Below, piece by piece: positions 1,455-55,539 of a DNA stretch of 64,000 nt. The stretch spans positions 25,093,938 through 25,157,937 of the forward strand of contig CAXIPT010000001.1 in the NCBI GenBank assembly GCA_964030475.1, given 5' to 3'. The DNA is from Tethya wilhelma (Eukaryota; Porifera; Demospongiae; Tethyida; Tethyidae). Within the stretch, counting starts at the first letter, position 1, and each line of letters opens with the position of its first letter. The notes below the pieces were generated by a model, which was given only the letters and a program-made list of their open reading frames with translations, had not been told where the DNA came from and made no database searches. A program made the translations under genes and the position numbers.

Positions 1455-3841
1455 ATGGCTCAGCGGCAACCGTGGCAACATCATGACTTACCCAAAATTG
1501 GATTCAAATCTGTTCAACTCCTGAAAAAGAAAACTCTTGGTATTGGATCATATGGAATTGTCTGTAAGGCTCAGTGTGATGATCTTCTATGTGCTGCTAA
1601 GATCATTCATCAAACTCTTTTTGATCCAAATGCATATGAACAAGTTGAACGCGACAAAGAACACAGACTACCCATTAGTCGTTTCATGCAGGAATGTGAG
1701 TTCATGAGTGCAATAAAGCATCCCAATATTGTACAGTTCCTGGGAACACACCAAGATCCTCAAACTGGCCTGCCAGTTCTACTAATGGAGCTCATGGACA
1801 ATAGCTTGACCCACTTCTTGGAGAGTTCACAGGATACACTCCCCTACCACATCCAAGTCAACTTTTGCCATGACATCACCATGGCCATTTCTTACCTCCA
1901 CTCTAATGGCATCACCCACAGGGATCTCTCTAGCAACAATGTGTTACTGCATGGAAATGTGCAAGCCAAAATAACAGATTTTGGAATGGCAAAGCTGGGA
2001 GATATAAACCCTCAAGCTACTCGTGTGTCCTTTACACTGTGTCCAGGAACAGATGCCTACATGCCTCCTGAGGCTGTGAAAGATCCACCTGTCTACACAA
2101 AAAAGATTGACTGCTTTGCAATTGGAACACTCATCATCCAGATTTTGACTATGTGCTTCCCTAAACCAGGAGATCGACACAAGACCATACAAATAGACCA
2201 TCCCAGGTGGTACAGTTGATGTAAGAATTTCAGAAATTAAACGAAGACAAAATCACATAAGTCTAGTTGATCCCAACCACCTTCTCCTACCAATTGCACT
2301 CGACTGTCTCAAGGACAGTGATGTTGAACGTCCTTCAGCTCAGGAGCTGTGTCATAGAATAGCAGCTTTGAAAGAAACAAATCAGTTCGCAGAAAGTGTT
2401 AGGAGAGCTCAAGAAAGACCAGAACCAGCTGATAATACAACTGAGAGAGAGGAAGAACTACGACAACAAGTTCAAGACAAAGATGAAGAGAATCGTCAGT
2501 TGAGACAAGAACATGCTCAGCAAATCCAAGAACTTCAACAAACCATTGGATCACAAATCAACCGTCTACAGCAAAAAAATGACATAATACGAGAGAAAAA
2601 TAAAATCTTACTGAATAATAAACAGACCATTGTAGTTGGTCAACAACAATGCCAACAGCTGAGAGAAACTATCAGAGACCAACAGAGACAACTGCAACAG
2701 GTCACTCAGCAACTTGAATCCAGTCAACAAGTGACAGCTCAATTTCAAACACGAATCCAACAACTAGAACAACAACTGAAGAGAAAACCACCAACTGAGG
2801 AACTAGCTAAACCACAACAAAATCTCAGAGCCTGTGACTCTCCACTGACTCATTACTCTGACAACACTAGTACAGCCACAGCAATCAAGGACAACTTCAC
2901 ACTTAGGTGGAGAGAGGGCAAGAAGGCACCACGTAGTTTGATCAGAGGGTCTTCTGCTGTTGATGGTAAGATAGTATATTTAAGACCTAATGGTGCTAAA
3001 ACATTTTATGCCTATATACAACTCCAGAGATAAGACATGGAATGAACTTCCAGAGTGTCCAAATCAATCAGTTTTTCTAGCAGTCATTCAAAACTCCATC
3101 ACTGCCATTGGTGGAATTAGAGCTAATTTAATTTATAAGGTGACCAATCAGCTCCTCAGCCTCACTGGGGAAGGTATGAGTAAGAGATGGAGAGAGGTGT
3201 TCCCACCAATGCCCACCAAAAGATCGTTACCTATAGCAGTGTGTACTGGAGAATGTCTAATAGTTGCTGGTGGAATAGATAAAGATGGAAAGAGACTGAG
3301 AATAGTGGAAGTCATGGATATACTGAAAGCAAACAATGGTCCTCTGCTGTAGACCTTCCTGAACCACTACTGATTCTTCAGTAACCATCTGTGGTGAACA
3401 AATCTACATTGGGGGAGGAACGAGTGGCAATGAGGCATTTAGTAAGTCAGTATACACATGTACATTGGCTGACCTCTTGCTGTCTTCTCAGTCAAGATCC
3501 CTAGGAAAGCGTTTAGCTCAATTTCTATCACTTACTGGTGCACCCAGGGCTACAGTATGGAGCAAAATTGCTGATCTTCCAGTTACATCTACTTGCATCA
3601 CACTTCATGGTCGACTACTAGCCATCGGTGGCAGTGATTCCAAGGACAAACCCACTTCAGATGTTCATATCTACCATTCCACTTCTATAGCACATGGGAG
3701 GTCATCAGTAAATTAAACACTAGTCGACGCTGGTGTTTTGCAGCTATTCTCTCCACAAATGAGCTAATGGTAGTGGGAGGCTGCACTACTAGTGATTGGA
3801 ACAATTCAACTGATTCAGTAGAAATAGCAACAATTGTCTAA
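1455..3841 (+). pseudogene. K1: kinase-coiled coil-Kelch copy 1, multiple frameshifts
   Basis: First copy of the array. It starts MAQRQPW and keeps a good kinase N-lobe and catalytic core (GIGSYGIV loop, CAAKII lysine, HRDLSSNN, DFG, CPGTDAYMPPE). Compared with intact copies, about 8 bp are missing near 2205 (the segment coding QFP before GGTVDV), which closes the frame at 2219. The frame resumes from about 2230 through the coiled coil to 3033, where about 4 extra bases (near 3013) break the first Kelch blade. Further indels occur near 3320, 3372 and 3688. The last blade still ends VEIATIV and stops at 3841. There are too many lesions for sequencing error alone, so this is a dead copy. The kinase part to 2219 could still be translated as a kinase-only fragment. 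Confidence 0.85.
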
Positions 3842-4112
3842 TTTAACTTGCTTATAACTTTATTTACACGTGCAACTTGTTTTTATGCTGTTATACTAGA
3901 AGCTATTATATAATATAGTCTAAAAGTGAAGCAGCAAAACGTGCATGTGATCATGACATGAATTAATGGGCTGGTTGGCTGTGTGCTATATAAGGGTGGC
4001 AAGTCAGTATCATTTTGAGGTCTGTGGTTTCTCCGTAATGTGCAAAAACAACAAAGATTAATAGAAAATTTCACGATAATAATTGTATTTATACAGTAAT
4101 AACAAGTTTTAC

Positions 4113-4161
4113 TGCATTCCAGTCAGTTATACCTAATTTAGGTATAACTGACTGGAATGCA
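4113..4161. repeat. Perfect 23-bp inverted repeat with 3-nt loop
   Basis: The arm TGCATTCCAGTCAGTTATA (4113 on, 23 nt ending in CCTA) is followed by ATT and then its exact reverse complement, ending at 4161. It lies in the 750-bp spacer between K1 and K2 (3842-4589), which otherwise shows no gene. It could be a cruciform, the end-joined remnant of an element, or a short hairpin transcript. Confidence 0.85.
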
Positions 4162-4589
4162 CTTGCAATATTATGTCATATACAGCTAAATCTGTTAATT
4201 AAGTTATTATAGAAACAAAGTCAAGACATATACAACAACCATATAAGAATTAAAGCAAAATCGCAAGAAGGAGATCACCTTAAGGGACCTTGAGTCAAGC
4301 TAGAACTTGGGTAGAAGCATGTGAGCTAGTGTATGTTTATATGTGACACTAGAGGGTGTATTTCCAATATCATGCATGCAGTGAATAGTTATAAATTAAT
4401 TTAATTCATAGTTTGTTCCTAGAAAGAAAGCTATAGGTGTTGCTATATCATAGTGTCAGGAACTTAAAGTTGATAACAGTATCTATCATAAAGTGTTTTG
4501 AACCTGTATAAAGTTACAAAGTTTGACACTTAACATTAAGAAAGACTTTGAAATTCAACAAATTACAGAAAAGCTAGGCAATATAGGAT

Positions 4590-6925
4590 ATGGCCCAGCA
4601 ACAACATCAGGTCACACCCAAAATTGGATTCAAATCTGTTCAACTTCTCAAAAAGAAAACTCTTGGTATTGGATCATATGGAATTGTCTGTAAGGCTCAG
4701 TGTGATGATCTGCTATGTGCTGCTAAAATCATTCATCAAACTCTTTTTGATCCAAATGCATATGAACAAGTTGAACGCAACAAAGAACACAGACTACCTA
4801 TTAGTCGTTTCATGCAGGAGTGTGAGTTCATGAGTGCAATAAAGCATCCCAATATCGTACAATACCTGAGAACACACCAAGATCCTCAAACTGACCTGCC
4901 AGTTCTACTAATGGAGCTCATGGATGATAGCTTGACCCACTTTTTGGAGAGCTCACAGGATGCAGTTTCCTACCACATCCAAGTCAACTTTTGCCACGAC
5001 ATCACTGTGGCCATTTCTTACCTCCACTCAAATGAAATCACCCACAGGGATCTCTCCAGCAACAACGTTTTACTGCGTGGAAGTGTGATAGCTAAAGTAA
5101 CAGATTTTGGAATGGCAAAGCTTGGTGACATAAACCCTCAAGCTACTCGTGTGTCCTTTACACTGTGCCCAGGTACAGATGCCTACATGCCTCCTGAGGC
5201 TGTGCAAGATCCACCTGTCTACACAGAAAAAATTGACTGCTTTGCAATAGGAACACTCATCATCCAGATCTTGACCAGGTGCTTTCCTAAACCAGGAAAT
5301 AGACACAAGATAATACACACAACTGATCCTCGATTCCCAACAATTGAAGCACGAGCTTCAGAAATTGAACGACGACAAAACCACATTAGTATAGTAGATC
5401 CCAACCACCCTCTTCTACTGATTGCACTTGACTGTCTTATAAGGATAGTGATGTAGAACGTCCTTCAGCTCAGAAACTGTGTCATAGAGTAGCAACTCTG
5501 AAAGAAACACTTCAGTACACAGAAAGTGTCAGGAGAGCTCAAGAAAGACTAGAACCAGCTGGTAATACAATTGAGAGAGAGGAAGAAATACCAAGGCGAG
5601 TTCAAGACAAATATGAGGAGAATCATCAGTTGAGACAACAATATACCCAGCAAATCCAAGGACTTCAGCAAATCATTGGATCACAAAACAACCGTCTACA
5701 AGACAAAGAACAGACTATTGTAGCTAGTCAACAAGAATGTCAACAGCTGAGAGGAACAATTAGAGACCAACAGAGACAACTACAACAAGTCACTCAGCAA
5801 CTTGAATCCAGTCAACAAGTGACGGCTCTATTTGAGACACGAATCCAGGAACTAGAACAACAGCTGATAAGAAAAACACCAACTGAGGTACTAACTAAAC
5901 CACAACCAATCCTCAGAGATCCCCCACAGACTCATTACTCTGACACCAGCACTACAACAGCCACAGCAACCAGAGACAGCTTCACATTGAGGTGGAGAGA
6001 GGGTAAGAAGGCACCATGTAAGACATTCAGAGGGTCATCTGCTGCTGATGGTGAGATGGTGTACTTCAGACCAGCTAATGTTAAAACATTTTATTCCTAC
6101 AACTCAAGAGATAAGACTTGGAATGCACTACCAGAGTGTCCAAATACAGGTGTTTTTCTAGCAGTCGTTCACAATTCCTTAATAGCCATTGGAGGGAGAG
6201 ACAGTGGTGGTAAGGTGACCAATCAGCTCCTCAGCCTCACTGGGGAAGGTGGGAGTAAGAGTCTGAGATGGAGAGAGGTATTCCCACCAATGCCCACCAA
6301 AAGAGCAGTATCAATAACAGTGTGTACTGGACAAGCTCTGATAGTTGCTGGAGGAGGTAATCAAGACAGGAAGGCACTGAAGACAGTGGAAGTCATGGAC
6401 ATTGATAGAAAACAATGGTCATCTGCTGCAGACCTTCCTGAACCACTCTATTCTGCATCAGTAACCATCTGTGGTGAACGTGTCTATATTGGAGGAGGAT
6501 GGAATGACAGTGGAGGTATCCAGTCAGTATACACCTGCACCCTGGCTGACCTCTTCCTATCTTGTCAGTCAAGATCACTAGGAGAAGAATTAGCTCAATC
6601 TCTATCACTAACCAGTCCACCCAGGTCTACTGTATGGAGTAAAGTTGCTGATCTTCCAGTTACACAATCCACTTGTGTCACACTTCATGATCGACTACTA
6701 GCCATCGGAGGCTGTGATTCCAAGGACAAACCCACTTCAGATGTTCGTATCTACCATCCCACCTCCAACACATGGGAGGTCATCAGCAAGATGAAAACTA
6801 GTCGCCGCTGGTGTTTTGCAGCAATTCTCCCCACCAATGAACTAATGGTGGTGAGCGGCCGCACTACAAGTAGTGGGTTCAGTTCAACTGACTCAGTAGA
6901 AATAGCAACAGTTTTAATTGTCTAA
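4590..6925 (+). pseudogene. K2: kinase-coiled coil-Kelch copy 2, single frameshift
   Basis: ATG at 4590 (MAQQQHQVTPKIGFKS). The kinase domain is complete up to its C-lobe. Near 5437 the sequence reads CTTATAAGG where intact copies read CTCAAGG, a gain of 2 bases that brings TAG into frame at 5454-5456. The other frame is open from about 5460 to 6925 and covers the coiled coil and all Kelch blades. This is the shortest coiled coil in the array: the KDDIIxEK units are absent and NNRLQ runs straight into DKEQTIV. Apart from the one indel the copy looks healthy, so either it is recently inactivated or the base call is wrong. It belongs to the DPPVYTEK / PKPG kinase C-lobe variant. The 3' flank carries a copied piece of EFCAB7 exon 4. 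Confidence 0.8.
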
Positions 6926-7042
6926 CTGAATTTGTACATAATTTTTATTGTGTGTGCTATAATAATTTATAGTAGAAATTGTTGTTTAACTTTATATTAT
7001 TGATATCTGTATGGAATCTTATAATCTGTCACATGTTACCTG

Positions 7043-7270
7043 TGTTGAGTGTAAGTGATGAGTTCCTCGGGCTCTTCATTCTCATTCGTACGAAACACAA
7101 ACAATAGTACGTCTGTTGCTAGGATACCAGGTGAAGCCACACCCATCTCTATCCAGACATTGGTCGGAGAGGGCAGTTTGAGTCGATAATGATGACATCA
7201 ATCGAATTAATGAAACCATCACTGACATCATCAGGATCACTCTCTGCTTCATCATCACCATTCTCCTAGT
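7043..7270 (-). pseudogene. Relic copy of EFCAB7 exon 4
   Basis: Closely matches 34383-34602, the inside of EFCAB7 exon 4, on the same strand. It has an 8-bp gain near 7200 that shifts frame and a 6-bp gain near 7233, and no splice sites survive at either end. It lies beyond the EFCAB7 stop codon, so it cannot be an exon of that gene. It was probably carried here with the 3' flank of a kinase-Kelch copy. The rest of the K2-to-EFCAB7 spacer (6926-7617) shows nothing else I can name. Confidence 0.85.
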
Positions 7271-7617
7271 ATTAATTTGATGTCCATCTATAGTACAAAC
7301 TTCAGTGTAAATAATTCATGCACCTATTCTTGTTTCTTTGGTATCATATCATTGCAATGTAGAAAACCATTGCAAGATTTCATATGGCAGGTAATAGACC
7401 AAAAGTTCAAAACTGTGCACTTTTGAAACGCAAAATACAGCGGATAAAGGGTTATAAATATTCAAACTTGACCTTTGAGCTGGAATTAAATGCAGCTGTT
7501 CACTGAAAACAACACTGTGTGTGGTACAATTTGTATTACCTAACTGGTGAAAATTTAAACACACAAATGGCAAGGGAAAAAAACAAAACATTTAATAAGT
7601 ACTGTACATGTTCAGTT

Positions 7618-8346: not shown

Positions 8347-8428
<82 letters not shown>

Positions 8429-11400
8429 TCAACAGGAATAAGTATGATAGATTTTAACCCAAATTAGCAAAATCAAAATACACTATCATGTTGCAAATAG
8501 GATAGACTTTGCAATTGGATAAGCATGATCTACCAGAAGTTTTATAACTAAGAAAGGAAGTACACCAGGTCGATTATGACATACTGCCATACAAGATAGA
8601 CATTATACATTGAGAGTTGAATCTTAGTTGGACAAAACCTATACACAAGTATTTTGATTTTTGCTTATTTGTTTTTCTTATTAAATCCAAACTATCATGC
8701 ATTGTTTCCCGGCTAACCTTGTATGACTTTCCATGATTCGTCATCACAGATCTCTCCAGAGGCTCTTTCTTGGAAGAAGTCAAACTCTGTCCTCCCCAGG
8801 TAGCCATTGCTATCCAGATCCATTCGATGGAATATCTCCTCCAACGCTTCACGACAACCCTCACTCAGTGCCACGCCCCCTTCTTGAGTCAAGAGTGCCA
8901 CACCTTCTTCTTCATCCTCTTCTCTCGGTTTGAGGTGGCAGCCAGAGGTAAAGGGGATCAGAGCATACGTACCCACGTCCAAATCCAACCTGCACACCCA
9001 ACGCTGTGTGAGTGTGTGTGTGTGTTTTGACCCACACGACTGATTCTCAATATTGGTCCATTGAACAAGCTGACATGTGTAGATATGTTATGTTTATCAA
9101 TGAGATACACAACACAATGGATGTTAACATGAATGTATTGGCCATGGACATAGCTAGCCTTGTTCCCAGGCTCCTCCTTCGTATCCTTCACAAGGGAGGA
9201 GCCTGGGAATGAGGCTGTAGGTCATAGCCCTGATTTCTTGTAACAACGTAAGGAAGTCTGAAATGACATTCTCACTATTTATGCTCTGTGTAAAGGCTGT
9301 TCAGTCAGTCTATCAGCCTATAACTGTTAGTCAAAAAACCAAAGAAAGTTATGTTCAGTGAAAGACACGGTTTTGAGTGATGTAAGTGCATGATAGCTGG
9401 CACAAACACTTATGCTTACAACATGTATTGTCTTATTGCAGGAAGAATGATAACCTGTACAGAGTCTGAGGTAAGTGAGCATGTATTATATATGTGCATG
9501 TGTGTATGGTGCGACCTACAACTTCCTAAACCTGCATGGAGGTGACCTGGATTATGAGGTTACATATAATTACATTATTAAGAACTATGGAATGCAATGT
9601 GGTTACAGTAATTAAAATTAATATCCTGTCACACAAAGAAAGTCTCAGTGTGCTACAATTAGAACATCCATAGTGTAAACAAAACACTGACACTTGAAGT
9701 TTACTATCGTGTTTTAAGCTCAGCTATGAGAGTCACTGTATAGCTCCAGTTTAATTACAAAATAACTTATTTTTGGCAGTTAATTGTACACTTTGGAAAC
9801 TTTGGAGAAGTATATGATATGGCTCAGCAACAAGATCAGGACACGCCCACAATTGGATTCAAATCTGTTCAACTCCTCAAAAAGAAAACACTAGGTATTG
9901 GATCATATGGAATTGTCTGTATGGCTCAGTGTGATGATCTGCTATGCGCTGCTAAAATCATTCATCAAACTCTTTTTGATCCAAATCTATACGAACAAGT
10001 TGAACGCAACAAAGAACACAGACTACCTATTAGTCGTTTCATGCAGGAGTGTGAGTTTATGAGTGCAATAAAGCATCCCAATATCGTACAGTTCCTGGGC
10101 ACACACCAAGATCCTCAAACTGACCTGCCAGTTCTACTAATGGAGCTCATGGAAGATAGTTTGACCCACTTCTTGGAGAGCTCACAGGATCCAGTACCCT
10201 ACCACATCCAAGTCAACTTTTGCCATGACATCACCATGGCCATTTCTTACCTCCATTTGAATGGCATCACCCACAGGGATCTCTCCAGCAACAACGTGTT
10301 GCTGTATGGAACAAGTAAAGCCAAAGTAACTGATTTTGGAATGGCTAAACTTGGTGACATAAACCCTCAAGCTACTCGTGCATCTTTTACGCTGTGTCCA
10401 GGAACAGATGTCTACATGCCTCCTGAAGCTGTGCAAGACATACCAAAATACACAGTGAAGATAGATTGCTTTGCCATTGGGATACTTATCATCCAGATTT
10501 TGACCAGGTGCTTCCCTGATCCTGGAAATAGACTCAAGACTGTACAAATAGATCATCCTCAGTTCCCTGGTGGTACAATATACGTGCCTGTATCAGAAAT
10601 TGAGCGAAGACAAAACCACATAAGTCAAGTTGATCCCAACCAACCTCTCCTACCAATTGCACTCGACTGTCTCAAGGACCGTGATGATGAACGTCCTTCA
10701 GCTCAGGAGCTGTGTCAAAGAGTAGTAGCTCTGAAAGACACACCCAAGTTCTCAGAGAGTCTTAAAAGAGCTCAAGAAAGAGCAGAACCAACTGAGAGAG
10801 AGGAAGAACTACGACAACAAGTTCAAGACAAAGAAAAGGAGAATCATCAGTTGAGACAAGAACATGCTCAGCAAATTCAAGAACTTCAAGAAATCATTTC
10901 GTCACAAAATAACCAATTACAGCAAAAAGATGACATCATATCGAAGAATAATGTCATCATAAGAGACAAAGATAAAAATATTCAGGAACTAGAACAACAG
11001 CTGAAGACAAAAACACCATCTGAGGTACTAGCTAAACCACAACCAAGCCTCAGAGACCCCCCACAGACTCATCAGATTGACACCAGAACAGCCACAGCAA
11101 CCAGAGACAGCTTTACCATGAGGTGGAGAGAGGGCAAGAAAGCACCATGTGGGATGGCCAGGGGGTCTTCAGTTGTTGATGGTAACATGGTGTACTTCAG
11201 GCCAGCCAATTCCAGAAGGTGTTATGCCTACAACTCCAGAGATAAGACATGGGATGAGCTTCCACAGTGCCCAAATACATCTGCTGTTCTAGAGGTTGTT
11301 CAAAACTCTCTAACTGCCATTGGAGGGAGAGACAGAAACAGACACAGTGATATGGTGACCAATCAGCTCCTCAGCCTCACTGGGGAAGGTAGCAGTAAGA

Positions 11401-14400
11401 GATGGAGAGAGGTGTTCCCACCAATGCCCACCAAGAGATCAAATGCCATAGCGGTTAGCACTGGACAAGCTCTAATAGTTGCTGGAGGAAGAGGAATTAG
11501 TCAAAACTTGGATCAACTGAAGACAGTGGAAATCATGGACTTTGATACCAGACAATGGTCATCTGCTGCAGACCTTCCTGAACCACTCAATGATGCCACA
11601 GTAACCATCTGTGATGAACGTGTCTACATTGGAGGAGGAGTGGGTAGCAGAGGATCTACCGAGTCAGTATACACCTGCGCTCTGGCTGACCTCTTCCTGT
11701 CTTGTCAGTCAACTTCACTAGGAGAACGTTTAGCTCAATCTCTAACACTAACCAGTCCACTTACTAGTAACTCTATTGTATGGAGCAAAGTTGCTGATCT
11801 CCCAGTTAAATGGTTCACTTGTGTCACACTTAACGATCGACTGCTAGCCATGGGTGGCTGTGATTCCAAATTCACACCCATTACAGATGTTCATATCTAC
11901 CATCCCACCTCCAACACATGGGAGGTCTTCAGCAAGATGAACACTAGCCGATGGCAGCGTTTTGCAGTTGTTCTCCCCACCAATGAAGTAATGGTGGTGG
12001 GCGGTTGGACTGCTGGGAATGAAGAAACTGATTCAGTAGAAATAGCAACGATTGTCTAACAACAATGCATTGAATATTTTTTGCTATAATTATAGCAGCT
12101 GGCATTGTGACAAACTTAAAAATGCTTGCATTCATGTATGACTCCAAAATTAATGTCAAATTTTTAACGTAACTTATTATCCAAAATAAAATTATTTCAT
12201 GTAAAACTTAAATTCTAAGCCAATTATTCACTGGAAGCAAGCAATTTAATCCCATGGATTTTGTTAAATTTTTTGTGGTGATCATCAAAACTAAAACCAT
12301 GAATTCCGCCGTGTAGCACGAGCATGTGAATACACCTAATATCTGCCAGGGAGGAGCCTGGGAATGAGGCTGTAGGACATAGCTCTGATTTCTTGTAACA
12401 ATGTAAGGAAGTCTGACATGACATTCTCACTATTTATGTTCTGTGTAAAGGCCGCTCCAGTCAGTCTATCAGCCTATCTCTGTCACTCAAAATCCTAAGA
12501 TATTGAAGTAATATTCAGTGAAAGATTCAGTTTTGAATGATGTAAGAGTATGACAGCTGGCACAAACTCTCAGTTATACTAGCAACAACATGTATTGTCA
12601 TGTTGCAGGGAGAATGCTTACCTATATAGAGGTAAGTGTGTATTATATGTGCATATACATGTATGTGACTTAACCTTAAAAACCTGGCCTGCTAAAAGTG
12701 CAGTGAGAAGGCCTGGCTTATGTGTGATCAGAGGAGTTACGACATGAATCCGCCTTTGCTGAGCTGGCCGGCAAGTGGGTGCACATGATCAACCGTCTCA
12801 TTGCGAACTATTACAGTCACATGATCAGAATGTAATTAATGGATTTGCCAGCTCAGCAAAGGCACACTTGTGTCGTACCTTCTCTGATGGTGTGATGGAT
12901 GTGTAATGCCCCACATGAACTATGGAATGCAATGTGGTTAGAGTAATTACTATCAATATCCTGTCACCCAAAGGGAGTACAGTGTGCTACAATTAGAACA
13001 TTCATAGTGTAAACAAAACACTGACACTTAAAGTTTACTATCACATTTTGAGCTTTCTAAAGTTTTCAAAGAGTAATTTAAATTAACTGCTGAAATTAGT
13101 CGTTTTGAAACTCAACTGGTAGAGAACAAGCTACTCTCAGAGCAGAGTATACAATATGGCTTATCAACAAGATCAGGACATACCCAAAATTGGATTCAAA
13201 TCCGTTCAACTCCTCAAAAACAAAACTCTTGGTATTGGATCGTATGGAATTGTCTGTAAGGCTCAGTGTGATGATCTGCTATGTGCTGCTAAAATCATTC
13301 ATCAAACTCTTTTTGATCCAAATCTATATGAACAAGTTGAACGCAACAAAGAACACAGACTACCTATTAGTCGTTTCATGCAGGAGTGTGAGTTCATGAG
13401 TGCAATAAAGCATCCCAATATTGTGCAGTTCCTGGGCACACACCAAGATCCTCAAACTGGCCTGCCAGTTCTACTAATGGAGCTCATGGACAATAGTTTG
13501 ACCCACTTCTTGGAGAGCTCACAGGATGCACTCCCCTACCACATACAAGTCAACTTTTGCCATGACATCATCATGGCCATTTCTTACCTCCATTCAAACG
13601 GCATCACCCACAGGGATCTCTCTAGCAACAATGTGTTGTTGTGTGGAACGGTCAAAGCCAAAGTAACAGATTTTGGAATGGCTAAACTTGGTGACATAAA
13701 CCCTCAAGCTACTCGTGTGTCCTTTACACTATGTCCAGGAACAGATGTCTACATGCCTCCTGAGGCTGTGCAAGATATACCAAAATATACAGTGAAGATC
13801 GACTGCTTTGCCATTGGGATACTTATCATCCAGATGTCCACCAGGTGCTTCCCTGATCCAGGAAATAGGCTCAAGACTGTACAAATAGATCATCCTCAGT
13901 TCCCTGGTGGTACAATATATGTGCCTGTATCAGAAATTGAACGTAGAAAAAACCATATCAGTCAAGTTGATCCCAACCACCCTCTCCTACCAATTGCACT
14001 CGACTGTCTCAAGGACAATGATGTTGAACGTCCTTCAGCTCAGGAGCTGTGTGATAGAGTAGCAGCTCTGAAAGAAACAACTCAGTTCACAGAAAGTGCT
14101 AAAAAAGCTCAACAAAGACCAGAACCAGCTCGTAATACAACTGAGAGAGAAGAACTACGACAACAAGTTCAAGACAAAGATGAAGAGATTTATCAGATGA
14201 GACAAGAACACACTCAGCAAATTCAAGGACTCAAGCAAACCATTTCATCACTAAACAACCAACTTAAGCAAAAAGATGACATCATTCGAGACAAAGAACA
14301 GACTATCCAAGAACTAGAACAGCTGATTCAGAAGCGAAAACCACCAACTATAATCAAGGATAGCTTCACACTTAGGTGGAGAGAAGGCAAGAAGGCACCA

Positions 14401-20400: not shown

Positions 20401-23400
20401 GTAGCAACTCTGAAAGAAACACCTCGGTTCACAGAGAGTGTTAAGAGAGTTCAAGAAAACCCAGTACCAGCTGGTTATACAACTGAGAGAGAGACAGAAA
20501 AGACAAAGATGAGAAGGATTGTCAGTTGAGACAAGAACATGCTCAGCAAATCCAAGGAATTCGGCAAACCATTGGTGAGATCATACATATCGTTCAAATT
20601 AATGAACAGAATATTGTAGCTATAGTCAACAAGAATGCCAGCATTTAAGAGAAACTATCAGAGACCAGCAGATACAACTGCAACTGGTCACTGAAAAAGT
20701 GACTGCTCAATTTGAAACACAAATCCAGGACCTACAACAACAGCTCAAGAGACAAGCATCAACTGAGGCACAAGCTCTACCAGAACCAAGCCTCGAAGAC
20801 CCGGTCCCCACAGGTATGTGTGTGTTTTAAAGAGTACGTTGCACTCATTTTGATTGTCAACTGATCCTGTTAATAATTGTACGAAATCTCAATTGCTATG
20901 TATATGATGTACCACGTACTATATATTATTGTTATAAATGTTTGCATCCATAGCAGTCATTCTCAAAAGTCCTTTACTAACATTTGCCATTAAAAATTTG
21001 TACATGGGTGATATGCCTATTCACGCATGCATGGATCGAAGTTTGTTACATTATATGAGATCCTTGTTTTGTGCATATATGTAGGAGGTCGCTATACACT
21101 TCGTTCAAAATGGGTAGGCTGTTTCACTTCGTGTTAGCTCACTTGAGATTGCCAATTTTTTGTTATTTTTGTTGGATAACCTTCACAGTTGAGACTGACA
21201 GTTTATCGAGTCATTTTAGATTGCATGAGGTAACTTACAGTAAGATTAATTGAAAATTTTCATTTAATTAAGATGGACAATTTTCTTGATTGGGAGATTG
21301 CTACTTTTTACCCACACAAACTGGGTATAACCACAAATATATATCCCAGGCCATAACAGAGTCTATGTGGGCCTGGGATAGAATGTTACAGTAAAAACAA
21401 GAAAAAATTTGCAGTTAAAATTAATGTTTTCATACATGAATGCAGAGCCATGTATTATGTGTCATATAGGAGTTTATTATACACTGTATATTCATAGCTT
21501 AGCTGTCACACAAAGAAAGGGTGTATGTGCTACAATTGGAATACAGTTGAAAGAACTAGATTTGTGAAACAAACCCAGGAAATAGAACAGCTGAACTGGA
21601 TCACTATAACTGACATACTTAAACCATAACCAATTGAGACTCTCTGCAGCAAAAGAATACTAACAATTGTTCTAGTATTACTTTTGCAAGAAACTTGAAG
21701 CTTGTATATGGAGGTCATAATTATGTGTGCATGACATTGCAAGGTAGAGGTGAATTCCTTAAAAACAATGTCATAATTAAGTAAATTAAATTAATTCATA
21801 CCTTCACACCTTATCATGCATGCACACAAAAGAAGGTGGCACTGTATAGGGCTAGATTCAAAATACTTCACAGTGCAAGGAACTTATAAAGTTGATATCA
21901 GTTTGGAGTTTTCTACAGTTGTTATTGTGTAAGTTTACAATTAAAACGTACTTAAAACAAGCCATTTTGGAGCTCAATTGATACAAAACAAGCTAAGTAA
22001 AAGGATAATATGGCTCAGCAAAGCCAGGACACGCCCACAATTGGATTCAAGTCCATTACACTCCTGAAAAAGAAACTTTGGGTATTGGATCATATGGAAT
22101 TGTCTGCAAGGCTCAGTGTGATAATCTCCTATGTGCTGCTAAAATCATCCATCAAACACTTTTTGATCTGAGTGCATATGAACAGGTTGAACGCAATAAA
22201 GAACACAGACTACCTATTAGTCGTTTCATGCAGGAGTGTGAGTTCATGAGTGCAATAAAGCATCCCAATATCGTACAGTTTCTGGGCACACACCAAGATC
22301 CTCAAACTGGCCTGCCAGTTCTACTAATGGAGCTCATGGACGATAGCTTGACCCACTTTTTGGAGAGCTCACAGGATGCAGTCCCCTACCACATCCAGGT
22401 CAACTTTTGTCATGACATCACTTTGGCCATTTCTTACCTCCATTCTAATGAAATCGCCCACAGGGATCTCTCTAGTAACAACGTGTTACTACGTGGAAAT
22501 GTGCAAGCCAAAGTAACAGACTTTGGAATGGCAAAGCTCAGTAATATAAACCCTCAAGCTACTCGTGTATCTTTTACACTGTGTCCAGGTACAGATGCCT
22601 ACATGCCTCCTGAGGCTGTGAAAGATCCATCTGTCTACACAGAAAAGATTGACTGCTTTGCAATCGGAATACTTATCATCCAGATGTTGACTACACGCTT
22701 CCCTGATCCTGGAAACCGATTCAAAACAATACAAATAGACCATCCTCAGTTCCCTGGTGGTACAGTTGATGTAAGAGTTTCAGAAATTGAGCGAAGACAA
22801 AACCACATAAGTCAAGTTGATCCCAACAACCCTCTCCTACCAATTGCACTTGACTGTCTCAAGGACAGTGATGTTGAACGCCCTTCAGCTCAGGAGCTGT
22901 GCCATAGAGTAGCAGCTCTAAAAGACACACATCGGTTCACAGAAAGTGTTAGGAGAGCCCAAGAAAGACCAGAATTAGTTGGTAACACAACTGAGAGAGA
23001 GGAAGAACTACGACAACAAGTTCAAGACAAAGATGACATCATAGAACAAAAAGAAGAGGAGAATTATCAGTTGAGACAAGAACATGCTCAGCAAATCCAA
23101 GGACTTCAGCAAATCATTGGATCACAAAACAACCATCTACAGCAAAAGGACGACATCATACAAGAGAAAAATGACATCATAAGAGAGAAAGATGACATCA
23201 TACGAGAGAAAGAACAGACAATTGTAGCTGGTCAACAAGAATGCCAACGACTGAGAGGAACTATCAGCGACCAACAAAGACAACTGCAACAGGTCACTAA
23301 ATCTAATCAACAAGCGACGGCTCAATTTCAGACACGAATCCAGGAAATAGAACAACAGCTGAAGAAAACCCCACCAACTGAGGAACTAGTTAAACCACAA

Positions 23401-26400
23401 CCAAGCCTCGGAGATCCCCCACACTCTGACACCAATGACAACTTCACACTGAAGTGGAGAGAGGGCAAAAGGGCACCTTACAAGATGGCCAGAGGGTCGT
23501 CTGTAGTCGATGGTGAGACAGTGTACATCAGATCAATTGATGCTGCAATGTTTTATGCCTACAACTCCAAAGATGAGACATGGAATGAATTACCAGAGTG
23601 TCCGAATAAACATGTTTCTATTGCAGTCATTCAACACTCCCTAACTGCCATTGGAGGGAAAAACCCTAAGGTGACCAATCAGCTCCTCAGCCTCACTAGG
23701 GAAGGTACATGGAGAGAGGTGTTCCCACCAATGCTCACCAAGAGGTCATTACCAATGGCAGTGTGCACTGGACAAGCTCTGATAGTTGGTGGAGGACACT
23801 CCGACTATTCCACATGGTATACAGTGGAAGTCATGGATATTGAAAGCAGAAAATGGTCATTGGCTGCAAATCTTCCTGTAGTATTCTCTGATCCTACAGT
23901 AACCATTTGTGGTGAATGTATCTACGCTGGTGGAGGAACGAATAAACTTAGGTCCATATACACATGCACCCTGGCTGACCTCTTCCGGTCTTGTCAATCA
24001 AGATCAGTAGGAGAACGCTTAGCTCGATCTCTACCACTAACCAGTCCAGTGAGTCCACCCAGCTCTAGAGTGTGGAGCAAAGTTGCTGATCTCCAATATA
24101 CAGAATTCACTTGTGTCGCATTTCACGATCGGCTCCTAGCCATTGGTGGCCGGGGTTCAAAAGCACCCACATCAGATGTTAGTATCTACCATCCCACCTC
24201 GTACACATGGGAGATTAGCACCAGGATGAAGGCTAGTTACCGGTGTTTAGCATTTGTTCTCCCCACCAATGAACTAATGGTGGTAGGTGGCCGCATTACT
24301 GGTAGTCAGAGTAGTCTAATAAGTGACTCAGTAGAAATAGCAACAGTTATCTAACTTGATATAGTTTATTGTGGTGCAAAATTAAATAGCAAATACAGTA
24401 GCTGCCTAACTTATACATTTACATCTTAGTGTGTTGCAAAACTAAGTAGCAATTGAAGAGCTGTGTTAGTTATCTATATATGCAACTTGTTAATATACTA
24501 TTAGTATTGTTACAATGTATTGTCAACATCACATATCAATTATTGTTTAGGGATTATGCATGTGTATGTCCGTATATACATGTGGGTGTGCTACAATTAG
24601 AACAAAGAAAGTAAAAGTACCAGAAAATAGCACTAGTTTTGAAATTTTCTACAGTTTCTACATCATCCAGATCTTGACCAGGTGCTTCCCTAAACCAGGA
24701 AATAGACTTAAAATAATCCACACTACTGATCCTTGATTCCCAACAATCAGTGAAACTCAAGCTTCAGAAATTGAGCAAAGACAAAACCACATCAGTCTAG
24801 TTGATCCTAACCACCCTCTCCTACCAATTGCACTTGATTGTCTCAAGGACAGTGATGTTGAACGTCCTTCAGCTCAGGAACTGTATCATAGAGTTGCAGC
24901 TTTGAAAAAAACACCACAGTTCACAGAAAGTGCTAGGAGAGCTCAAGAAAGACCAGAACCAGCTGGTAATACAACTGAGAGAGAGGAAGAACTACGACAA
25001 TTTCAAGACAAAGATGACATCATAGAACAAAAAGATGAGGAGAATCGTCAGATGAGACAAGAACATGCTCAGCAAATCCAAGGACTTCAACAAATCATTG
25101 GATCACAAAACAACCGTCTACAGCAAAAAGATGACATCATACAAGAGAAAAATGACATCATACGAAAGAAAGAACAGATTATTGTAGTTAGTCAAGAAGA
25201 ATGCCAACAGCTGAGAGGAACTATCAGAGACCAACAGAGACAACTGCAACAGATCACTGAATCTAATCAACAAGTAACAGCCCAATTTCAGACACAAATC
25301 CAGGAACTGAAACAACAGCTGAAGAGAAAATTATCAACTAAGGAACTAGCTAAACCACAACCAAGCCTCAGAGACCCCCCACTGACTGATCTCTCTGACA
25401 CCAGCACTAAAACAGCCACAGCAACCAGGGACAGCTTCACACTGAGGTGGAGAGAGGGTAAGAAGGCACCATGCAAGATGATCAGAGGGTCTTCAGCTGT
25501 TGATGGTGAGATGGTGTACTTCAGACCTGGTGGTGCTAGAATATTTTATGCCTACAACTCAAAAGATGAGACATGGAATGAACTTCCAGAGTGTCCAAAT
25601 CAATCAGTTTTTCTTGCAGTCATTCAAAACTCCCTAACTGCCATTGGAGGGAAAGACAGTGGTTATAAGGTGACCAATCAGCTCTTGAGCCTCACTGAGG
25701 AAGGTAGGAGTACGAGATGGAGAGAGGTGTTCCCACCAATGCCCACCAAGAGAGATCAAACAATAGCAGTGTGTACTGGACAAGCTCTGATAGTTGCTGG
25801 AGGAGGTGATCAAGATTATAAGGTACTAAGGACAGTGGAAGTCATGAACATTGATACAAAACAATGGTTATCTGCTGCAGACCTTCCTGAACCACTATGG
25901 GGTGCCACAATAACCATCTGTAACCATCTGTGTAGTGAATATGTGTACATTGGGGGAGGTTGGAGTGGCAGTCGATATACTAAGTCAGTGTACACCTGTA
26001 ACCTGACTGACCTCTTCCAGTCTTGTAAGTCAAGATCACTAGGAGAACGTTTAGCTCGATCTCTATCACTAATCAGTCTACTCAGGTCTAATGTATGGAA
26101 CAAAGTTGCTGATCACCCAGTTACCCAATCCACTTGTGTGACAGTTCACGATCGACTGCTAGCCATCGGTGGCTGTAATTCCAAGGACACACCCACTTCA
26201 GATGTTCGTATCTACCATCCCACTTCCAACCAATGGGAGGTCATCAGCAAGATGAACACTGGTCGATGGCAGTGTTTAGCAGCTGTTCTCCCCACTAATG
26301 AACAAATGGTTGCTGGTGGCTTTACTACTAATAGTTATGGTAAAACTGACTCAGTAGAGATAGCAAAAGTTGTCTAATTTGATGCATAATCTAATTTGTT

Positions 26401-29400
26401 ATAGTGTACTAAAGTAGCAAATTATTGTATGCAATCTTAATTGTTGTAATGCTGTTACATACTGATCGCTTAATTTTAGACTATTCTGAGGTAATGTATC
26501 AGGGCATATGAGGCACGTTTACAAGGAATGGCATATGATATACTATTACTTTCTGGGTTGCATTTAGAAATAGAGAAAGGGGAGGGGGGGGCAAAATCAC
26601 TAAAAGATGTTTAGCAATATTTTCACACTTACAGCTGTATAATTATGGTAAATCACTATAACCTTAAACTCCTTTAATCCCTTCATGTATATTGTAGTGT
26701 ATATACATGTATGAACCTGGTAAACTTCGTGTTGTAGTGGTTTACTACAGTACTATTGTGTTCAGTTTAATTGAATAAATAGAGATAGCAACGGTTGTCT
26801 GACTACTATAGGTTTGCCTAAAAATGTCAACACATGCAACCACAAACCAGTCACCATGACTCATGTCCCATACTATGTACCAAGGGTTTTCCCATGCACT
26901 GGGCCTCAAGTAAACAACGTCTTTAACACCGGGTCAACAACAGCCAGAAAATGTAAACTATAGATCTAGCTAGAACAACTGTTTTTATTACGGAAACATA
27001 CTGTATTACTTTGTTTAAAGGCCTGAGCATTTTTTACATGCCTTTGCATGGTTACTAAAGCCACAAATAAACTGACTCAGGCTTTTGTAGCACATCATGA
27101 GACTTATCACATGTACATACATGTACAAACCATGCATGCATGCTTGCTGTAAATTTTGGTGTGTATAAAATGAAAGTAAAACTACACACTTTCACCAAAG
27201 TGTGCTACTATCACTTCCACACAGAAAGTGTCACCAAAAACTACACACAAATTTAACATGTAACAGGTCACTGCTAATATTTTCAGATTCAAGTATTTTC
27301 CGCAATTGTTCTGGTCATAGTTTCCTCCACAACAAGCCAGTCAACAACAACCAAAGTAAAATGAAACCAAGTGCTTATGGCACAACAAGAATGCTAGTTA
27401 TCTCTGCAATATCTCAATCTCATAAATTGCCGTGCGCATGCATGTATAAGGGGAGATCAATAGATAGTGGTCATAAGCCTGTGACATAGAGAAATAGAGG
27501 TGAATTCCTTAAAATTATGAACATGTGATACATAAAATAGTGCAAGTATATATACATATGGACTATCACACAAAGAAATAAATGTGGTGCTGCTTCAAAC
27601 AATCAGAGTAAGTTTAGTCGACACTTAAAATTGAATCAGTTTTGAGGGCAATTTTTACACTAGTATTTATACTAAACAATTAGAAACAAACTTTGTCTAT
27701 TGGTTCAAACTAGCTAAGTACTATACTTTACATAAGAGTGCAGGATATGGCTCAGCAACAAAATCAGGACACGCCCAAAATTGGATTCAACTCAATTCAA
27801 CTACTCAAAAAGAAAACTCTTGGTATTGGATCGTATGGAATTGTCTGCAAGGCTCAGTGTGATGGTCTCCTATGTGCTGCTAAGATCATTCATCAAACTC
27901 TGATTGATCCAAAAGCACATGAACGAGTTGAACGCAACAAAGAACACAGATTACCTATTAGTCGTTTCATGCAGGAGTGTGAGTTCATGAGTGCAATAAA
28001 GCATCCCAATATTGTACAGTTTCTGGGCACACACCAAGATCCTCAAACTGACTTACCAGTTCTACTAATGGAGCTCATGGACGATAGCTTGACCCACTTC
28101 TTGGAGAGCTCAAGGGATGCAGTCCCCTACCACATCCAAGTCAACTTTTGTCATGACATCACCTTGGCCATTTCTTACCTCCATTCTAATGAAATCACTC
28201 ACAGGGATCTCTCAAGTAATAACGTGTTACTACGTGGAAATGTGCAAGCCAAAGTAACAGACTTTGGAATGGCAAAGCTTGGTGATATAAACCCTCGAGC
28301 TACTCGTGTGTCTTTTACGCTGTGTCCAGGAACAGATGTCTACATGCCTCCTGAAGCTGTGCAAGACATACCAGAATACACAGTAAAGATCGACTGCTTT
28401 GCCATTGGAATACTTATCATCCAGATGTCCACCAGGTGCTTCCCTGATCCAGGAAACCGATTCAAAACCATTCAACTAAATCATCCTCAGTTCCCAGGTG
28501 GTACAATATATGTACCTGTACCAGAAATTGAGCGAAGACAAAACCACATAAGTCTAGTTGATCCCAAGCACCCTCTCCTACCAATCGCACTCGACTGTCT
28601 CAAGGACAGTGATACTGAACGTCCTTCAGCTCAGGAGGTGTGTCATAGAGTAGCAGCTCTGAAAGAAACACATCGGTTTACAGAAAGTGTTAGGAGAGCC
28701 CAAGAAAGACCAGAACCAGCTGATAATACAACTGAGAGAGAGGAAGAACTACGACAACAAGTTCAAGACAAAGATGACATCATAGAACAAAAAGAGGAGG
28801 AGAATTGTCAGTTGAGACAAGAATATGCTCAGCAAACCCAAGCACTTCAGCAAATCATTGGATCACAAAATAACACACTACAGCAAAAAGACGACATCAT
28901 ACAAGAGAAAAATGATATCATAAGAGAGAAAAATGACATCATACGAGAGAAAGAACAGACAATTGTAGCTAGTCGACAAGAATGCCAACAGCTGAGAGGA
29001 ACTATCAGAGACCAACAGAGGCAACTGCAACAGGTCACTAAATCTAATCAACAAGTAACGGCTCAATTTCAGACACGAATCCAGAAACTAGAACAACAGC
29101 TAAAGAAAAACCCACCAACTGAGGAACTAGCTAAACCACAACCAAGCCTCAGAGACACCTCACAGACTCATAACTCTGACACTTACAACTTTACACTGAA
29201 GTGGAGAGAGGGCAAAAAGACACCTTACAAGATGGCCAAAGGATCATCTGTGGTCGATGGTGAGATAGTGTACATCAGATCAATTGATGCTGCAATGTTT
29301 TATGCCTACAACTCAAAAGATGAGACATGGAATGAACTACCAGAGTGTCCAAATCGAGCTGTTTCTCTTGCAGTCATTCAACACTCCCTAACTGCAATTG

Positions 29401-32400
29401 GAGGGAAAAACTCTAATACCATTAAGGTGACCAATCAGCTCCTCAGCCTCACTGAAAAAGGTGGGAATAAGAGTTGGAAAGAGGTGTTCCCACCAATGTC
29501 CACCAAGAGAGTACTACCATTAGCAGTGTGCACTGGACAAGCTCTGATAGTTGGTGGAGGACATAATGACTTTGAAACATGGACAACAGTGGAAGTCATG
29601 GATATTGAGAACAGACAATGGACATTTGCTACAGACCTTCCTGTACAATTCTATGATCCTACAGTAACCATTTGTGGTGAACGTATATATGCTGGTGGAG
29701 GAACAAATGCTCATGGAAAACTTACGTCCATATACATGTGCACCCTGGCTGACCTTTTCCGGTCTTGTAAATCAAGATCAGTAGGAGAATGCTTAGCTCA
29801 ATCTCTATTGCTAACCAGTCCAGTGACTCCACCCAGCTCTAGAGTGTGGAGCAAAGTTGCTGATCTCCAATATACTGAATTCACTTGTGTCGCACTTCAC
29901 AATCGGCTCCTAGCCATTGGTGGCTGGGTTTCAAACGCACCCACTTCAGAGGTTCGTATCTACCATCCCACTTCTGACACATGGGAGGTTAGCACCAGGA
30001 TGAAGGCTAGCTACCGGTGTTTAGCATTTGTTCTCCCCACCAATGAACTAATGGTGGTAGGCGGCCGCACTACTGGTAGTCAGAGTAGTATAACTGACTC
30101 TGTAGAAATAGCAACAGTTATCTAACTTATGCAATTTATTGTGGAACAAAATTAAGTAGCAAATACAGTAGCTGCCTAACTTATACATTAACTTATAAAC
30201 CCTTGGTACCACATACTATATTTTTATAAATATCTGCATCTGATAACATGCAGTAATTCTCAAAAATCCTTTACTAACATTTGCCAATAAAAATGTGGGT
30301 ATAGAGGGAACCTCAAAAAGAGGGAGCTACTTAACATGTAGTTTAGAATCGTACTAGCCTAGGTTTGCCAAAAATGTCAACACATGCTACTACAAACCAG
30401 TCACCATGGCTCATGATCCATATACTGTATCAAGGATTTTAATTTCCCACTGGGCCTCAACTAAACACCAGTCTCAAATAATCATTAACACTTGGTCAAC
30501 AACAGGCCAGAAGATAGTAAAAAAATGTAAGCTAGATCTAGCTACAACTGTTTTTATTATGGAAACATACTGTATTACATTGTGTAAAAGCTCAAGCACC
30601 AGTTACATACATGTATGCCTTTGGTCACTATAGCAACAAAAAAAATTGAGGATCATAGTTTGTAGTACAATGTCATAAAACTTATCACAATCCATCATGC
30701 ACTTTGCTAGCTAGATTTGTTCCCAGGCTCCCTACCTATACCTGGGAGTGAGGCTGTGACTATAATATTTAGTCTGAGAGACAAAGCTGCATAAGTTTAT
30801 GTGAACAATGCAATGAATACACTAATTATATTCATAGCCTGTAACACACAAAAAGAGAAGGTGCTGCAATTAGAACAGTCACAGTGTGTGCCACTCTTAG
30901 AGTTGATGTCAGTTTTCAATGTTCAATAGTTTCAAAGGTGAACACTAACTGCTAAATAGAGGTATTAAACTCTCTACAATAGTTAGTTTGAGCAAGGAAT
31001 TGAAGCTACTGTAACAGATAGAGGGCCATAGGATAACATGGCTCAGCAACAACATCAGGACAGGCCCAACATTGGATTCAAATCTGTTCAACTTCTCAAA
31101 AAGAAAACTCTTGGTATTGGATCGTATGGAATTGTCTGCAAGGCTCAGTGTGATGATCTACTCTGTGCTGCTAAAATCATTCATCAAACTCTTTTTGATC
31201 CAAATGCACATGAACAAGTTGAACGTAACAAAGAACACAGACTACCTATTAGTCGTTTCATGCAGGAGTGTCAGTTCATGAGTGCAATAAAACATCCCAA
31301 TATTGTACAGTTCCTGGGTACACACCAAGATCCTCAAACTGACCTGCCAGTTCTGCTAATGGAGCTAATGGACGATAGCTTGACCCACTTCTTGAAGAGC
31401 TCACAAGATGCAGTCCCCTACCACATCCAGGTCAACTTTTGCCACGACATTACCATGGCCATTTCTTACCTCCATTCAAATGAAATCACTCACAGGGATC
31501 TCTCCAGCAATAATGTGTTGCTGCGTGGAAATGTGATAGCCAAAGTAACAGACTTTGGGATGGCAAAGCTTGGTGACATAAACCCTGAAGCTACTCGTGT
31601 GTCCTTTACACTGTGTCCAGGTACAGATGCCTACATGCCTCCTGAGGCTGTGCAAGATCCACCTGTCTACACCAAAAAGATTGACTGCTTTGCAATCGGG
31701 ACACTCATCATCCAGATCTTGACCAGGTGCTTCCCTAAACCAGGAAATAGACTTAAAATAATCCACACAACTGATCCTCGATTCCCAACAATTAAGGCTC
31801 AAGCTTCAGAAATTGAGCGAAGACAAAACCACATTAGTCAAGTTGATCCCACCCACCCTCTCCTACCGATTGCTCTTGACTGTCTCAAGGACAGTGATGT
31901 TGAACGTCCTTCAGCTCAGGAGCTGTGTCATAGAGTAACAGCTCTGAAAGAAACACCTCAGTTCACAGAAAGCATTAGAAGAGCTCAAGAAAGACTAGAA
32001 CCAGCTGGTAATACAACTGAGAGAGAGGAAGAACTACGACAAGTTCAAGACAAAGATGACATCATAAGACAAAAAGAAGAGGAAAATCGTCAGTTGAGAC
32101 AAGAATATGCTCAGCAAATCCAAGGACTTCAGCAAATCATTGGATCACAAAACAACCGTCTACAGCAAAAAGATGACATCATACAAGAGAAAAGTGACAT
32201 CATACGAGACAATGAACAGACTATTATAGCTAGTCAGCAAGAATGCCAACAGCTGAGAGGAGCTATCAGAGACCAACAGAGACAACTGCAACAGGTCACT
32301 CAGCAACTTGAATCTAGTCAACAAGTGACGGCTCAATTTCAGACACGAATCCAGGAACTAGAACAACAGCTGAAGAGAAAATCACCAACTGAGGTACTAG

Positions 32401-33548
32401 CTAAACCACAACCGAGCCTCAGAGACCCCCCACTGACTCATCACTCTGTCAGCAGTACTAGAACAACCACAGCAACCAGGGACAGCTTCACACTGAGGTG
32501 GAGAGAGGGCAAGAAGGCACCATGTAAGATGGTCAGGGGGTCTTCTGCTATTGATGGTGACATGGTGTACTTCAGACCAGCTGATACTAGAACATTTTAT
32601 GCCTACAACACTCAAGATAAAACATGGAGTGAACTACCAGAGTGTCCAAATCAATCAGTTTTTCTTGCAGTCATTCAAAACTCCCTAACTGCCATTGGAG
32701 GGAGAGACAGTGGGGATAAGGTGACCAATCAGCTCCTCAGCCTCACTGGGGAAGCTAGGAGTAAGAGATGGAGAGAGGTGTTCCCACCAATGCCCACCAA
32801 GAGATCAAATGCAATAGCGGTTAGCACTGGACAAGCTCTGATAGTTGCTGGAGGAGGTAATCAACATTATAAGCCACTGAAAACAGTGGAAGTCATGGAC
32901 ATTGCTATGAAACAATGGTCATCTGCTGTAGGCCTTCCTGAACCACTCTGGAATGCCCCAATAACCATCCTTGGTGAACGTGTCTACATTGGAGGAGGAG
33001 CGAGTGACAGTAGACTTAGAAAGTCCGTATACACCTGCACCCTGGATGACCTCTTCCTGTCTTGTCAGTCAAGATCACTAGGAGAACGTTTAGCTCAATC
33101 TCTATCACTAACCAGTCCACTCAGGTCTACCATATGGAGCAAAGTTGCTGATCTCCCAGTTACACATTTTACTTGTGTCACCCTTCACGATCGACTGCTA
33201 GCCATCGGTGGCTGTGATTCCAAGGACACAACCACTTCAGATGTTTGTATCTACCATCCCACCTCCAACACATGGGAGGTCATCAGCAAGATGAACACCA
33301 GTCGACGCCTGTGTTTAGCAGCTGTTCTCCCCACCAATAAACTAATGGTGGTGGGTGGCTACACTATTAGTAGTGTGTTTAGTTTTAGTAAAACTGACTC
33401 AGTAGAAATAGCAACAATTGTCTAATTTCATACATAATCTAATTTCTTGTAGTATATATGTATGTATATGCTAAAGTATCAAACAGTTGTAAGCAATATC
33501 TTGTTAACCCTTGGTGCGCATGCGCAGCAGGGGTTATGGTAGTCGTTT

Positions 33549-42323: not shown

Positions 42324-55539
<13,216 letters not shown>

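What the first reader, a model, noticed from the sequence alone, without database searches (positions are those of the whole stretch)
1455..33425. Tandem array of ten intronless kinase-coiled coil-Kelch genes
Ten head-to-tail copies share an architecture I do not know from a characterised animal protein: N-terminal TKL-like kinase with all catalytic residues, Gln-rich coiled coil, C-terminal six-bladed Kelch propeller. Five are intact, two have a single indel and three are clearly dead, so there is birth and death of copies. A conserved catalytic head joined to a variable binding domain in an expanding array is the pattern of recognition or stress-sensing families. That reading is inference; the architecture and copy states are seen directly.
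Basis: partly seen in the sequence, partly recalled or inferred. Interest (0 to 1): 0.9.

Follow-up and report, generated by a model that had tools for sequence, protein, structure and literature searches.

The report
Sponge kinases with hypervariable propeller pockets
A genome that is likely a sponge's carries at least 194 genes or gene remnants with one kind of protein-kinase head, most of the long ones ending in a propeller whose fast-changing sites cluster on the face where related proteins grip their partners, so they likely form an inborn set of intracellular recognition proteins, predicted to sense microbes.

Summary
The array is real: ten head-to-tail copies, five intact, two with one break, three dead. 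The kinase head recurs at 194 or more loci of this genome (likely a demosponge's); 133 have long open frames, 111 of these with a Kelch match downstream. The kinase is under purifying selection (omega 0.25); in Kelch, 17 of 19 sites with dN>dS lie in loops of the face that binds partners in Keap1. Six groups of database proteins outside this genome's clades vary most at the same positions. A low-copy relative with the same domains shows the reverse. First and second bases of the selected codons are near saturation, third bases are not raised: selection, not targeted mutation, is the likely cause. Weaker points: against opposite-face loops alone, enrichment in this genome is modest (p 0.0024 to 0.021), and one of eight contig groups shows no face difference. 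Best reading: an inborn repertoire of cytosolic recognition kinases with a private pocket per copy, likely for microbial ligands. Ligands, expression and kinase activity are untested. Eight paper searches listed no description.

The parts
1455..3838 (+). copy 1, dead (several frame breaks)
4590..6925 (+). copy 2, one frame break between kinase and coiled coil
9819..12059 (+). copy 3, intact, 746 aa
13156..15288 (+). copy 4, intact, 710 aa
16105..18783 (+). copy 5, intact, 892 aa, longest coiled coil of the window's copies (282 residues)
19510..20803 (+). copy 6, dead: kinase and part of the coiled coil, no Kelch
22009..24354 (+). copy 7, frame break near residue 21, rest open
24662..26377 (+). 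copy 8, dead: residues 1-223 missing
27747..30125 (+). copy 9, intact, 792 aa
31038..33425 (+). copy 10, intact, 795 aa, reference for residue numbers
31098..31931 (+). copy 10 kinase domain (residues 21-298)
   Evidence: Pfam Pkinase 7.4e-38
32022..32372 (+). copy 10 coiled coil, predicted single helix of residues 329-445
   Evidence: AlphaFold model; 3.5-residue periodicity p=0.0015
32493..33422 (+). copy 10 Kelch propeller, six blades (residues 486-795)
32532..33392 (+). stretch that holds the 19 codons with dN>dS (residues 499, 515, 539, 590, 591, 607, 639, 646, 658, 660, 686, 710, 730, 731, 758, 777, 782, 783, 785)
17260..17346 (+). 21-bp tandem repeat inside the coiled coil of copy 5; likewise in copies 5 (17544-17588), 7 (23152-23213), 8 (25127-25171), 9 (28893-28952), 10 (32168-32209)

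Best explanation
The ten genes belong to a family with 194 or more kinase-head loci in this likely demosponge genome and likely act as an inborn repertoire of intracellular recognition kinases: each Kelch propeller carries its own version of the pocket at the mouth of the six blades, which would bind a different, predicted microbial, ligand, and binding would bring the kinase heads together through the coiled coil and switch on a common signal. Shown: architecture, copy states, purifying selection on the head, diversifying selection at sites of the pocket-face loops, the same variable positions in other groups of the family, a more conserved pocket in a low-copy relative, seven-residue repeats in the coiled coil, disagreement of head and tail trees (recombination). 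Predicted: six-bladed fold, single long helix, no membrane segment, hence cytosolic. Inferred: ligand binding by the pocket (from Keap1), activation by oligomerisation (from kinase-coiled coil proteins in general), microbial nature of the ligands (from the pattern of selection and from what sponges face), downstream signal (solved relatives of the head include IRAK4; relatives in the same genome carry an A20-type OTU domain or lie before an SH2 exon).
Against: No ligand, expression, kinase-assay or population data. Immune use rests on analogy: allorecognition or diversified endogenous signalling could leave a similar pattern. In this genome the contrast with the opposite face alone is modest: Fisher 0.013 without and 0.0024 with the helical insert, 0.021 with predicted loops; rank test of all posteriors 0.064-0.069. 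d-a loops as a whole have omega 0.59, a-b turns 1.16 (0.83-1.63), and b-c loops exceed 1 only narrowly (2 delta lnL 4.2). One selected site lies in an a-b turn, one in the insert. One of 8 groups (c2912306, 5 sequences) shows no face difference (p 0.33). Head and tail trees disagree (6 of 8 strong kinase splits contradicted); recombination can inflate site tests. dN/dS exists for this genome only; the rest are proteins clustered at 90%, whose species are unknown, so the six groups need not be six species. The loop map was drawn after the site list was seen, though before the database groups; the contact offsets follow the published list but were written down after two groups had been viewed, and the blade-1 positions were set by hand.
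Confidence: 0.6

Rival explanations
1. Self/non-self or cell-identity code: the pockets read host peptides or allelic products, as in allorecognition, not microbes.
For: The same selection pattern would be expected; sponges show allorecognition (general knowledge, no call). No result here separates it from microbial sensing.
Against: Known sponge allorecognition works at the cell surface (recalled); these proteins show no membrane segment or hydrophobic N-terminus.
Confidence: 0.15
2. Diversified endogenous signalling: each copy targets a different host protein, as KLHL adaptors do, to tune stress responses.
For: KLHL proteins use the same fold for different host partners (structure titles); transcripts called 'Kelch motif containing gene' fall after microbial patterns in two sponges (passages of PMC6208332), architecture not stated there.
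Against: A fixed endogenous partner predicts a conserved pocket per orthologue, as seen in the low-copy relative, not genome-specific clades with near-random residues at single pocket sites.
Confidence: 0.15
3. Loops of any propeller simply tolerate change; the variability has no function.
For: Loops vary more than strands in most proteins (general knowledge); a-b turns here have omega 1.16.
Against: Opposite-face loops vary far less in 7 of 8 groups; the low-copy relative keeps the contact positions more conserved than the rest; b-c loop omega 1.30.
Confidence: 0.04
4. A targeted mutator diversifies pocket codons.
For: In one group single positions differ in 80% or more of pairs between neighbours that hardly vary.
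Against: Third codon bases at the selected codons are no more diverse than at other loop codons of that face (0.42 against 0.41).
Confidence: 0.03

Closest known systems
KLHL/KEAP1 BTB-BACK-Kelch adaptors
   Different: Kinase plus coiled coil, no BTB or BACK in Pfam; pocket differs from copy to copy
NOD-like receptors of sponges and plants
   Same: Works-like comparison (family biology recalled): large repertoires, effector head, oligomerisation part, C-terminal repeat sensor
   Different: No NACHT/NB-ARC and no LRR in Pfam hits; kinase head, Kelch sensor
IRAK4 and other TKL kinases
   Same: Kinase head matches IRAK4 (1.8e-18) and LIMK1 (1.7e-18); the two top rows are an EGFR entry (6.2e-24) and yeast PKA (8.5e-20)
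   Different: No death domain; HRDLSSNN loop has Ser where most Ser/Thr kinases have Lys
Nematode and plant F-box/MATH adaptor families under diversifying selection (recalled, no call)
   Same: Expanded adaptors with selection on the substrate-binding part
   Different: Ubiquitin-ligase adaptors without kinase

Membership tests
KLHL/KEAP1 family | C-terminal six-bladed Kelch propeller | tested here: met
KLHL/KEAP1 family | N-terminal BTB and BACK domains | tested here: not met
   Pfam scan of six copies lists none at E 0.01
NOD-like receptors | NACHT or NB-ARC domain | tested here: not met
   none listed in six copies
IRAK family | Death domain N-terminal to the kinase | tested here: not met
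   none listed in six copies; about 20 residues precede the kinase
Protein kinase superfamily (active) | Glycine loop, VAIK-type Lys, helix-C Glu, HRD Asp, DFG Asp | tested here: met
   5 of 5 intact copies; these columns are invariant or 90% conserved in 64 sequences
Protein kinase superfamily (active) | Phosphotransfer activity | not testable with these tools
   needs a bench assay
Germline recognition repertoire | Lineage-specific expansion | tested here: met
   30 of 42 own tips in one own-only clade of a 282-tip kinase tree, midpoint rooted
Germline recognition repertoire | Diversifying selection at ligand-contact sites | tested here: met
   protein-level in other groups
Germline recognition repertoire | Binding of non-self ligands | not testable with these tools
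   none

The most novel reading that the evidence does not exclude
Sponges run an antibody-like inborn repertoire inside the cell: hundreds of cytosolic kinase receptors per genome, each with a private, selected pocket at the mouth of an otherwise fixed six-bladed propeller, a class of animal immune receptor not yet described, with the low-copy kinase-Kelch gene as its fixed-ligand relative.
Probability: 0.45. Interest if true: 0.95.

Novelty: new variant of a known kind. Interest (0 to 1): 0.87.

Why it matters
How animals without adaptive immunity tell many microbes apart is open; sponges live with dense symbiont communities. A receptor class whose contact residues can be read from the genome would make ligand specificity directly testable, would add the Kelch propeller to the few folds known to carry a hypervariable binding site, and, since the designed SAKe propellers share the fold, would offer natural pocket libraries for design. 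It also suggests that single-exon host genes enter sequence catalogues as plain 'serine/threonine protein kinase' (the only name given among the 120 rows listed).

Tried and rejected
Bacterial or viral origin: one scan of the 84,980-genome prokaryote collection confirmed 381 matches, of which the best 80 were kept; these are kinase-region matches at 35% identity or less. One scan of viral contigs gave one kinase match of 28%. Both scans used kinase peptides only. NCBIfam hits, antiphage kinase MAD6 among them, lie far under their cut-offs (82 against 460 bits).

5'-UTR intron: AG within 2-11 bases of ATG in 25 of 35 copies against 0.50 by chance; suggestive for one subclade, weak overall. Dispersal by shared flanks: 32 of 820 upstream and 10 of 820 downstream pairs show collinear similarity, and by coordinates some upstream ones are the tail of the preceding copy; how copies moved between chromosomes is unresolved.

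Failed or partial computations: stuck on its starting value, superseded; one search stopped after its table, rerun; one search placed only 17 of 30 own coiled coils and none of four other groups; one search found nothing (pattern too strict), one search did; one search printed nothing, redone; iqtree gave no omega. Group 'Z(8)' holds 7 sequences. Rows dropped: of 41 full-length frames, 9 divergent, 1 near-duplicate, 1 with an over-long Kelch part; the broken copy 7 stayed in. In one search rows that repeated one search were left out when pasting and one search was not merged; not all 194 loci carry Kelch (L134 and L138 carry OTU; 22 of 133 long frames have no Kelch match in the capped lists, though two of the 22, in L012 and L049, do span Kelch). 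'Same contig' for database proteins is inferred from equal contig lengths. One Mycale paper (passages) names Kelch-type propeller and kinase families among expression changes, not this architecture.

Full report
What is there. The window lies at C1:25,093,938-25,157,937 of a 124.6-Mb assembly. Ten same-strand copies of one gene fill 1455-33425; five are intact, two have one break, three are dead. Each intact copy is one coding exon of 710-892 codons: kinase (Pfam E about 1e-37), Gln/Glu-rich coiled coil, Kelch propeller. Neighbours in the window include ORC2 and a SIR2 exon.

Host. A silicatein query recalled from memory found exons in this genome with the signature QGDCGASYAFSA, in which Ser stands for the catalytic Cys. 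Silicatein is a demosponge enzyme (general knowledge), so the host is likely a siliceous demosponge; the species was not identified (searched genome notes by size without a match).

Size of the family. Kinase-head searches with three members give 194 distinct loci on 15 contigs, 133 with an open frame of 690 aa or more and no stop; 84 neighbouring pairs lie within 12 kb and 79 of them are on one strand (from; lower bounds). 111 of the 133 have a Kelch match downstream in the capped lists. A Kelch-only search gives 136 matching stretches. Among the loci fetched, 41 frames span the whole protein. In public protein data 4,417 of 7,996 scored candidates match at E 1e-3; only the best 120 are listed, and 116 of these carry both kinase and Kelch domains. 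The prokaryote and viral scans gave only distant kinase matches.

Evolution of the parts. In 30 close copies the kinase is 303-310 residues long (285 in the broken copy 7) and has omega 0.246; the coiled coil ranges from 101 to 283 residues; Kelch has omega 0.61. Simple pairwise counts agree: medians 0.20, 0.49, 0.53 for kinase, coiled coil, Kelch. In the 17 copies whose coiled coil could be cut out, 168 of 422 internal gaps of four or more residues are multiples of 7 and 106 leave remainder 4, both compatible with an unbroken coiled coil; pairs are not independent. The DNA shows 21-bp repeats there. Kinase and Kelch trees disagree: 6 of 8 well-supported kinase splits are contradicted by well-supported Kelch splits, so heads and tails likely recombine.

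Where the Kelch domain varies. A grid estimate of dN and dS per codon finds no site with dN>dS (posterior >0.9) in the kinase, 3 in the coiled coil, 19 in Kelch. They recur at equivalent places of the blades: just before strand a and after the double glycine. I mapped strands and loops from motifs and from alignment to designed SAKe propellers: 17 of 19 fall in d-a and b-c loops, 17 of 92 against 2 of 208. Against the opposite face alone the contrast is weaker, p 0.013 to 0.0024, and a rank test of all posteriors gives 0.064-0.069. The later AlphaFold model (mean pLDDT 75, Kelch about 90, pTM 0.47, so domain orientation is not known) puts the same 17 in these loops: 17 of 123 against 2 of 179; opposite face alone p 0.021. 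In Keap1 the published partner contacts (Tyr334, Ser363, Asn414, Arg415, Ile461, Gly462, Arg483, Ser508, Tyr525, residue 530, Ser555, Ala556, Tyr572, Phe577, Ser602; passages of PMC6891428) repeat every 47 residues at the same offsets from the double glycine; that register is my reading, with Keap1's sequence partly recalled, and agrees with the structural match 507-795 to 325-587.

Other groups. Database proteins that share contig lengths form clades without this genome's copies; their species are unknown. With the loop map fixed, eight contig groups show kinase difference 0.05-0.09, strands 0.06-0.15, pocket-face loops 0.29-0.44, opposite loops 0.02-0.26; the face difference is significant in 7 of 8, not in c2912306. 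In one group (42 copies) and another (13), 31 of the 40 most variable positions of the whole protein lie in pocket-face loops in each. Contact-equivalent positions exceed every rotation in 7 of 7 groups, this genome included.

Controls. A relative with a short linker, present in two copies here (C9; next match 36-40%) and on 15 different contigs elsewhere, has the reverse pattern: contact positions 0.295 against 0.413 elsewhere in Kelch for 16 sequences, 0.082 against 0.305 for 13. So loop tolerance does not explain the arrays. At the 19 codons first and second bases differ in 64% and 63% of pairs, third bases in 42%, as at other loop codons (41%): the mutation rate there seems not raised.

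How it likely works. No membrane segment or hydrophobic N-terminus is evident, so the protein is predicted to be cytosolic. The pocket likely binds a ligand; ligand or multivalency would gather kinase heads along the coiled coil; the head would then signal. Its solved relatives include IRAK4, LIMK1 and CTR1, below an EGFR entry and yeast PKA. Relatives with the same head carry an OTU domain closest to OTUD7B and A20 in which the catalytic Cys appears replaced, or lie before an SH2 exon; this fits an immune-type signalling module but does not prove it. Every step after 'pocket-face sites are under diversifying selection' is inference.

What is known. Eight searches of an open-access library aimed at the family (two of them, 19 and 79, returned nothing) show no title or abstract start that describes it; I saw listings, and passages of five papers. 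Subscription papers and preprints are not held, and the Amphimedon genome paper could not be read. Two sponge expression studies mention Kelch genes without this architecture (passages).

Verdict. Function is unproven, but the claim is now specific: positions, controls and experiments are named.

Noticed in passing
L134 and L138 (C11:379000-381800, C11:384100-386800): Same kinase head followed by an OTU domain (Pfam 5.7e-11 and 7.2e-11), in L134 closest to OTUD7B/A20; the catalytic Cys position reads Asn or Ser, so a likely inactive deubiquitinase.
   Followed up: partly
L140 (C6:4645000-4647900): Kinase head with coiled coil followed about 445 bases on, in another frame, by an SH2 domain (Pfam 4.8e-13): likely an intron-bearing relative.
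   Followed up: partly
L137 (C9:2581000-2583600) and C9:2575997-2576857: Low-copy kinase-Kelch gene without long coiled coil, conserved pocket, relatives on 15 contigs elsewhere.
   Followed up: yes
C10:1661592-1663592 and C10:1664703-1666670: Two kinase matches in a row with the same open-frame length (768 and 787 aa) and no Kelch match: possible kinase-kinase proteins.
   Followed up: no
C7:118327-119256 and C16:740394-741323: Two kinase loci with identical scores and the same stop: a very recent duplication or an assembly duplicate.
   Followed up: no
C1:18333586-18337280: Three tandem cathepsin-L-like genes in single open frames, with the usual catalytic Cys.
   Followed up: no
window 46428-46829 and 59050-60102: Immunoglobulin and fibronectin-III exons (Pfam) of likely surface receptors downstream of the kinase array; more Ig-like frames up to 63196 were not tested.
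   Followed up: no
window 8347-8426: (GA)40 microsatellite.
   Followed up: no
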